DNA from: a virus
Length of the DNA stretch: 27,785 nucleotides
Reading direction: 5' to 3' (one strand)
IMG/VR virus record: IMGVR_UViG_3300050020_000115
Location: 1-27,785 of that record
The notes below the pieces were generated by a model, which was not told the origin of the DNA, ran no database searches, and saw only the letters and a program-made list of their open reading frames with translations. The position numbers and the translations under genes are program-made. Below, in pieces: positions 3,657 to 3,821 of the stretch; the first letter of the stretch is position 1, and each line of letters starts with the position of its first letter.

Positions 3657-3740
3657 TGCGGTAGTGAGAGATTCGGTTACTTCTTGCTGAAAGCCAGTCC
3701 CCTGAAAGGCGGGGACATCTCCGATCTCGTTTTCTCCGCA
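3657..3740 (+). ncRNA. Candidate Y RNA, module 1
   Basis: Starts at the expected transcription start. Its two ends pair: TGCGG (3657-3661) with CCGCA (3736-3740), then AG with CT, leaving U3662 bulged. An internal region (TGA against GTTTT) follows, then GAGA/TCTC, a bulged T, and TCGG/CCGA (3668-3676 with 3721-3728). The apical part has a GTCCCC/GGGGAC hairpin with an eight-base loop. The 5' strand contains GGTAGTGAG, identical (from memory) to part of the Ro-binding strand of vertebrate Y1 RNA. Length (84) and end-pairing fit Y RNAs. In contrast to Y1, there is no exact CTCACTAC partner, and I see no clear tRNA-like T-loop as in bacterial YrlA. The RNA call is inference from structure plus the adjacent TROVE gene. 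Confidence 0.55.
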
Positions 3741-3753
3741 CATTAAAATAACA

Positions 3754-3821
3754 GCGGGTAGTGAGTCAAACGATTTCATCTTTTTATATAAAATCGCTGA
3801 CGATTTTTCTCCAGTTTTTTT
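3754..3821 (+). ncRNA. Candidate Y RNA-like module 2 / leader element
   Basis: A second copy of GGTAGTGAG (3757-3765), 97 bases after the first, again in GCGG(G)TAGTGAG context. GG(U)AG pairs with CTCC (3809-3812), leaving the same U bulged; inside, GTCA/TGAC and CGATTT/AAATCG form the next helix. The 3' side TTTTTCTCC repeats the TTTTCTCC of module 1. Seven Ts (3815-3821) follow, so transcription may end here. A competing hairpin AAAATCG-CTGA-CGATTTT also exists. CTCC could instead pair with the GGAG of the downstream ribosome binding site. The element may be a second small RNA or a control region bound by the Ro protein. Confidence 0.45.

What the first reader, a model, noticed from the sequence alone, without database searches (positions are those of the whole stretch)
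3657..3821. Two tandem Y-RNA-like modules with the same split motif
GGTAGTGAG occurs twice (3660-3668, 3757-3765), each followed by a hairpin and then TTTTCTCC (3730-3737, 3804-3812). In both, GG(U)AG can pair with CTCC and leave the same U bulged. The 9-mer equals part of the Ro-binding strand of vertebrate Y1 as I remember it. Repetition inside 165 bases of sequence-divergent hairpins argues for selection on the protein-binding part.
Basis: partly seen in the sequence, partly recalled or inferred. Interest (0 to 1): 0.8.

Follow-up and report, generated by a model that had tools for sequence, protein, structure and literature searches.

The report
Phage Ro60 with tandem Y RNAs
A phage carries its own copy of the Ro60 RNA-binding protein with two small partner RNAs in front of it; related phages carry rows of one to five such RNAs that share a bulged stem, a recurrent version of a known but little-studied RNA-protein machine.

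Summary
The + strand ORF 3835-5190 is a TROVE/Ro60 protein. GGTAGTGAG occurs twice (0.11 expected). Module 1 (3657-3740) folds as described, with outer stem, bulged U3662 and 2 bp, behind a 12-of-12 sigma70-type promoter whose expected start is the foot of the stem. Module 2 (about 3756-3814) repeats the motif, but its closing stem is weak and its CUCC pairs with the Ro60 Shine-Dalgarno in the folded leader.

Ten related loci all carry such modules before Ro60. Across 27 modules the stem, a 1-nt bulge (U 22, C 4, A 1) and the next 2 bp covary: 88% of cells paired, 46-61% when slid, 0 of 1000 shuffles. 28 of 33 modules have [AU]UACU[UC]C; 9 carry T- and D-arm motifs. Sampled named Ro60 phages carry similar arrays.

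Best reading: phage-encoded Ro60-binding Y RNAs, here hairpin-only. The Y1 9-mer is probably coincidence. Phage Y RNAs are already in print; possibly new are the bulge motif, tRNA-free modules and arrays ending 7-39 nt before Ro60.

The parts
3623..3650 (+). sigma70-type promoter TTGACA - 16 nt - TATAAT, expected transcript start about 3657
   Evidence: 12 of 12 consensus matches; start position inferred from the usual spacing
3657..3740 (+). module 1: hairpin-only Y RNA-like RNA
   Evidence: held-out descriptor score 30.2
3657..3664 (+). module 1 foot, 5' strand: UGCGG, bulged U3662, AG
   Evidence: pair probabilities 0.56-0.88; covarying motif in 27 modules
3677..3683 (+). UUACUUC motif at the top of stem 2 in module 1
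   Evidence: [AU]UACU[UC]C in 28 of 33 modules
3734..3740 (+). module 1 foot, 3' strand: CU CC GCA
3756..3814 (+). module 2: second copy of the split motif around a different hairpin; weak closing stem
   Evidence: held-out descriptor score 28.5
3805..3812 (+). UUUUCUCC of module 2; UCUCC (3808-3812) also pairs with the Shine-Dalgarno in the free leader
   Evidence: pair probabilities 0.59-0.65
3825..3831 (+). AAGGAGG Shine-Dalgarno of Ro60
   Evidence: sequence; the bases GGAG have probability 0.01 or less of being unpaired in the free leader
3835..5190 (+). TROVE/Ro60 protein, 451 aa
   Evidence: Pfam 2.4e-30, phrog_850 4.9e-40, PDB sequence matches, model and Foldseek

Best explanation
A phage-borne Ro60 unit. 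One transcript starts at the foot of module 1 and carries two hairpin Y RNA-like modules followed by the Ro60 gene (co-transcription inferred). The Ro60 ring binds the foot of each module: an outer stem ending GG, a bulged pyrimidine, two base pairs and an asymmetric loop (binding inferred from position, recurrence and covariation). Stem 2 with UUACUUC and the apical part face away and act as gate or tether (inferred from the known RNPs). In relatives some modules end in a tRNA-like T-arm and D-arm as in YrlA; the two window modules do not, so they would gate or stabilise Ro60, or recruit a partner by another contact, rather than by tRNA mimicry. Module 1 is well supported; module 2 may be a weaker copy that also serves the leader of the Ro60 message.
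For: Ro60 identity. Consensus promoter ending at the foot of module 1. Two 9-mers where 0.11 are expected. Modules in front of Ro60 in 10 of 10 relatives with upstream sequence, the last one 7-39 nt before the start codon in 11 of 11 loci. Covarying bulged foot. Held-out descriptor finds both window modules. Enclosing stems around upstream anchors stronger than around 68 control anchors. Similar arrays beside Ro60 in named phages. Known binding of Rsr to the basal stem of YrlA (PMC8394870 passages).
Against: No binding or expression data. Module 2 does not fold better than shuffles and its closing pairs lose to the Shine-Dalgarno pairing. Arms were chosen with pairing in view, so covariation counts lean towards the model. 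Rfam YrlA does not match in the window. L014a, L018a, L017a and L017b lack the pyrimidine bulge. A false-looking descriptor hit scores 31.5 elsewhere in the window.
Confidence: 0.8

Rival explanations
1. Only module 1 is a Y RNA; module 2 is a leader element whose UUUUCUCC is the anti-Shine-Dalgarno of Ro60, and its GGTAGTGAG is a decayed copy without function.
For: UCUCC pairs with GGAGG at 0.59-0.65 in the leader while the module foot pairs have probability 0.0; energy no better than shuffles; no UUACUUC.
Against: The exact 9-mer and 8-mer are repeated; the held-out descriptor scores it 28.5; in isolation it closes as a module-like fold, though weakly; in the other 10 loci the last module before Ro60 has its own closing stem.
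Confidence: 0.4
2. The elements are cis-regulatory leader structures of the Ro60 message (autoregulation) and not free Y RNAs.
For: The last module lies 7-39 nt before the start codon in 11 of 11 loci; no terminator was called between module 2 and Ro60.
Against: Arrays of up to five modules, modules behind Ro60 in L016 and L005, and tRNA-like arms in 9 of 33 modules fit trans-acting RNAs better.
Confidence: 0.12
3. Chance hairpins and a chance 9-mer repeat in an AT-rich intergenic region.
For: Modest z-scores; other descriptor hits above 22 in the window.
Against: Recurrence in ten related loci with covariation and control tests.
Confidence: 0.04

Closest known systems
Bacterial YrlA Y RNA (Rfam RF02553), with Rsr
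   Same: Basal stem formed by both ends beside a Ro60 gene, a second stem with a short conserved motif, and in some relatives T- and D-arms that match RF02553 below its cut-off.
   Different: The window modules have no tRNA-like domain and no Rfam match. The foot is GG-Y-NG-URA with a bulge, not the GGCGAAUGC/CUUGUCGCC foot seen in a Rhizobium plasmid beside rtcR.
Vertebrate Y RNAs (Y1)
   Same: A Ro60 homologue next to the RNA; a bulged pyrimidine near the foot and an asymmetric opposite strand; the letters GGTAGTGAG occur in Y1.
   Different: In Y1 the 9-mer can pair in a continuous helix (primer texts); the Ro60 site described there is a 7-bp helix with a bulged C and a 3-nt bulge opposite. 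Likeness of function, no sign of homology.
Putative Y RNAs of Listeria phage CKA15 (PMC12282133)
   Same: Several unannotated, highly transcribed regions shortly upstream of a phage Rsr homologue (passages).
   Different: In the related phage P100 the hairpins upstream of gp165 have another motif, CUAACAGCAA[UA]UACUA.
Ro60 of Thermus phage phiLo (PDB 9l5y)
   Same: Phage Ro60 fold; second-best Foldseek match of the window model.
   Different: 24.6% identity; no clear module array beside it.

Membership tests
Y RNA (Ro60-bound noncoding RNA) | encoded with a Ro60 protein | tested here: met
   TROVE protein at 3835-5190
Y RNA (Ro60-bound noncoding RNA) | 5' and 3' ends pair into a bulged basal stem | tested here: met
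   module 1 and covariation in 27 modules
Y RNA (Ro60-bound noncoding RNA) | the same bulged basal stem in module 2 | tested here: inconclusive
   motif repeated, closing pairs not favoured
Y RNA (Ro60-bound noncoding RNA) | physical binding to Ro60 | not testable with these tools
   needs a binding assay
YrlA (Rfam RF02553) | match to the family model at the gathering score | tested here: not met
   no match in the window; below cut-off in 8 of 10 related records
YrlA (Rfam RF02553) | tRNA-like T- and D-arms | tested here: not met
   absent in both window modules, both motifs in 9 of 33 modules of the set
Vertebrate Y RNA | bulged C and 3-nt opposite bulge in a 7-bp helix | tested here: not met
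   bulged U in both window modules and another arrangement; criterion from PMC4726728
Ro60/Rsr protein | TROVE ring plus vWA domain | tested here: met

The most novel reading that the evidence does not exclude
The array is a built-in gauge for Ro60: the last Y-like module sits 7-39 nt before the Ro60 start codon so that Ro60 not occupied by the other Y RNAs binds its own leader and changes translation. In the window this would work through a switch in which CUCC pairs either with the module foot (Ro60 bound) or with the Shine-Dalgarno (free leader); in L017 a Shine-Dalgarno-like AGGAGG is itself part of the outer stem of the last module.
Probability: 0.2. Interest if true: 0.7.

Novelty: new variant of a known kind. 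Interest (0 to 1): 0.5.

Why it matters
Bacterial Y RNAs are recognised in Rfam through the YrlA model, which misses the two modules here. A foot motif defined by covariation gives a way to find tRNA-free Y RNAs beside phage Ro60 genes and makes the Ro60 contact directly testable with short RNAs. Arrays of dissimilar modules sharing one protein-binding foot are natural variants for asking what the far end of a Y RNA does, and why phages carry this machine.

Tried and rejected
Rfam searches of the window and the locus: only chance matches. A covariance model of the joined arms was not built, because I judged that the long middle inserts would swamp it. Forced folding of module 2 did not work: the constraint had no effect, so only the free folds are used. 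The bulge test around anchors did not single out the 1-nt bulge, since its stems were free to move; the test anchored on the outer stem did. The Y1 homology idea was rejected on the pairing context. The 89-aa minus-strand ORF 3642-3911 overlapping the modules was taken as a mechanical ORF and not tested. The P100 stretch 20-36 kb was the wrong part of that genome. By eye CCGCC-CATAA-GGCGG-TTTTT at 5291-5310 looks like a terminator after Ro60, but the scan did not call it.

Rows dropped: L008, L009, L011 and L013 are the contigs of L001-L004; L012 begins 5 nt before its match and has no upstream sequence; L005 (28% identity) was kept apart; L014a, L018a, L017a and L017b were left out of the arm table because they lack the pyrimidine bulge, and L016b and L016c because they were found later; hairpins L014z, L018z and L002 1690-1790 were not counted as modules; L019 was not in the coding/noncoding count (no annotation). 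Named phages sampled: 13 Ro60 loci of 198 records with a match, plus P100; plasmids: 6 of 77.

Full report
What was checked. The two 9-mers and two 8-mers are in the window, at 3660-3668, 3757-3765, 3730-3737 and 3805-3812. The 9-mer pair is not expected by chance (0.11 expected, 0 of 100 shuffles with two), whereas TTTTCTCC alone is common (5 found, 2.2 expected).

Setting. The window is a virus record of 27,785 bases. The window proteins that could be named apart from Ro60 lie on the minus strand, among them a major head protein (phrog_267), an HNH endonuclease and an endolysin. The plus-strand ORF 3835-5190 matches Pfam TROVE at 2.4e-30, phrog_850 RNA-binding protein at 4.9e-40, and PDB chains 9l5y, 9kop and 2nvo by sequence. 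A model from 11 aligned sequences (mean pLDDT 79.3) matches solved Ro60 structures best: 9kop, 9l5y (Ro60 of Thermus phage phiLo), 1yvp (Ro with RNAs) and 2nvo (Deinococcus Rsr). Residues D290, S292, S294, T352 and D374, which I take for the vWA metal site, are invariant in the 11 sequences.

Module 1. The minimum-energy fold of 3652-3745 is an outer stem, bulged U3662, A-U and G-C, internal loop, stem 2 and an apical hairpin; pair probabilities in the leader are 0.61-0.88 for the outer stem and 0.56-0.58 for the two inner pairs. The energy is modestly better than shuffles (17 of 200 as good for 3656-3740, 7 of 200 for 3640-3745). A 12-of-12 sigma70-type promoter lies at 3623-3650; the usual spacing, which I recall, puts the transcript start at about 3657, the first base of the stem.

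Module 2. It repeats GGTAGTGAG and TTTTCTCC around another hairpin. It is no better than shuffles in energy. Alone it closes as GGG/CUC. In the leader 3657-3860 its CUCC instead pairs with the Ro60 Shine-Dalgarno, and the proposed pairs have probability 0.0. It lacks the UUACUUC motif. It is therefore the weaker half of the finding.

Relatives. Two scans of viral contigs gave 5 and 10 loci, four contigs being the same in both, and one genome scan gave one locus. Leaving out L012 (no upstream sequence) and L005 (set apart), ten relatives plus the window give 11 loci. All 11 carry one to five such modules in front of Ro60, and the last module ends 7-39 nt before the start codon. L016 has two more modules behind Ro60, and L005 has anchors behind its Ro60. 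In 33 modules listed by eye from folds, 28 contain [AU]UACU[UC]C, 11 a T-loop motif and 9 a D-arm motif. Rfam YrlA matches 8 of 10 related records below its cut-off (best 53.5 bits against 69). A caution: the same model also gives sub-threshold matches in 13 of 14 control genomes.

The foot motif. In 27 modules from 10 of these loci the outer stem ends GG (or AG), then one bulged base (U 22, C 4, A 1), then two pairs (one G-C 24, C-G 2, G-U 1; the other G-C 14, U-G 6, A-U 4, U-U 3), then mostly U-R-A on the 5' side and U-W-U on the 3' side. With the outer stem alone fixed, a 1-nt 5' bulge followed by two pairs fits 21 of 24 modules, more than any of the 15 other offsets (14 for the next). Over eight pair columns 88% of cells are paired (90% in 21 modules after removing near-copies), against 46-61% when slid and a mean of 65% (maximum 72%) when 3' arms are exchanged between modules, 0 of 1000 reaching the observed value. 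Because I chose the arms with pairing in view, these counts lean towards the model. The control with 68 other anchors from the same records, searched in the same way, supports the enclosing stem but does not by itself single out the bulge.

Wider distribution. Among 198 INPHARED records with a match to this Ro60 I looked at 13. In 11 annotated ones [AU]UACUUC occurs 31 times in 13,864 noncoding nt and 13 times in 45,019 coding nt on the + strand. Arrays are plain to the eye in Xanthomonas phage Olaya, Caulobacter phage CcrColossus, Brevundimonas phage Domovoi, Streptomyces phage BRock and phage csAssE-Sib. Among these named-phage loci L019-L030 the held-out descriptor scores above 30 only in L020, L026 and L030, and once on the minus strand of L019 inside the Ro60 gene (a false hit), so the foot motif varies between phage groups. 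Vibrio phage pv27 and Thermus phage phiLo show no clear array. A Rhizobium plasmid beside rtcR carries YrlA-type RNAs with another foot, GGCGAAUGC/CUUGUCGCC.

Literature. Of the papers held I read passages only. PMC8394870: YrlA binds Rsr by its basal stem and PNPase by the tRNA-like domain. PMC4726728: the vertebrate Ro60 site. PMC7790460: Rsr and Y RNAs in the RNA repair operon. PMC7824862: TROVE proteins in some jumbo phages. PMC12282133: Listeria phage CKA15 has an Rsr homologue found in purified particles and three highly transcribed regions within 2 kb upstream, which its authors think may be Y RNAs; they also state that Y RNAs were identified bioinformatically in mycobacteriophages. In the related phage P100 I see by eye three short hairpin repeats directly upstream of gp165, which I presume to be the counterpart and did not search against family libraries. 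The founding papers (Chen 2013, Chen 2014, Sim and Wolin 2018, Wang 2018) are not held, so I cannot say whether this foot motif is already drawn there. The listings of my literature searches showed no paper titled for such a motif or for phage Y RNA arrays.

Verdict. Phage Y RNAs are a known kind. This locus is a real pair of Y RNA-like modules, one strong and one weak, of a tRNA-free form with a covarying bulged foot, and it belongs to a wider set of arrays beside phage Ro60 genes. Binding, expression and function are inferred.

Noticed in passing
window 3572-3600, minus strand: A second promoter-like site (11 of 12 matches) points the other way, 22 nt from the Y RNA promoter, so this intergenic region looks like a divergent control region.
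   Followed up: no
window 5163-5300, plus strand: A short open frame overlaps the end of Ro60 (seen by eye, about 45 aa, looks like a small DNA-binding protein) and ends in a GC-rich hairpin with a T run that the terminator scan did not call.
   Followed up: no
L001, L002, L003, L010, L015 outer stems: A C-A mismatch stands at the fifth outer pair below the bulge in 9 of 27 modules; it may be part of the binding site.
   Followed up: partly
L014 2390-2484 and L018 2388-2484: The last module of both loci carries the same extra hairpin GUCUG-UxAUGCU-CGGAC where others have a tRNA-like arm.
   Followed up: no
L038, reverse strand directly upstream of gp165 (Listeria phage P100): Three tandem short hairpins with CUAACAGCAA[UA]UACUA; they may be the highly transcribed regions reported for the related phage CKA15.
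   Followed up: partly
L002 254-1241 and 5491-6287: 14 tRNA genes flank the five-module Y RNA array and Ro60 gene, as in several named Ro60 phages.
   Followed up: no
L024 4016-4179 (Streptomyces phage BRock): Near-threshold match to the manA RNA family (49.7 bits, cut-off 55.2) among the tRNAs behind Ro60.
   Followed up: no
L018 (contig filed under Candidatus Aenigmarchaeum): A 3-kb MAG contig carries a Ro60 start and three modules very like those of virus contig L014; it is probably a viral contig binned with the archaeon.
   Followed up: no
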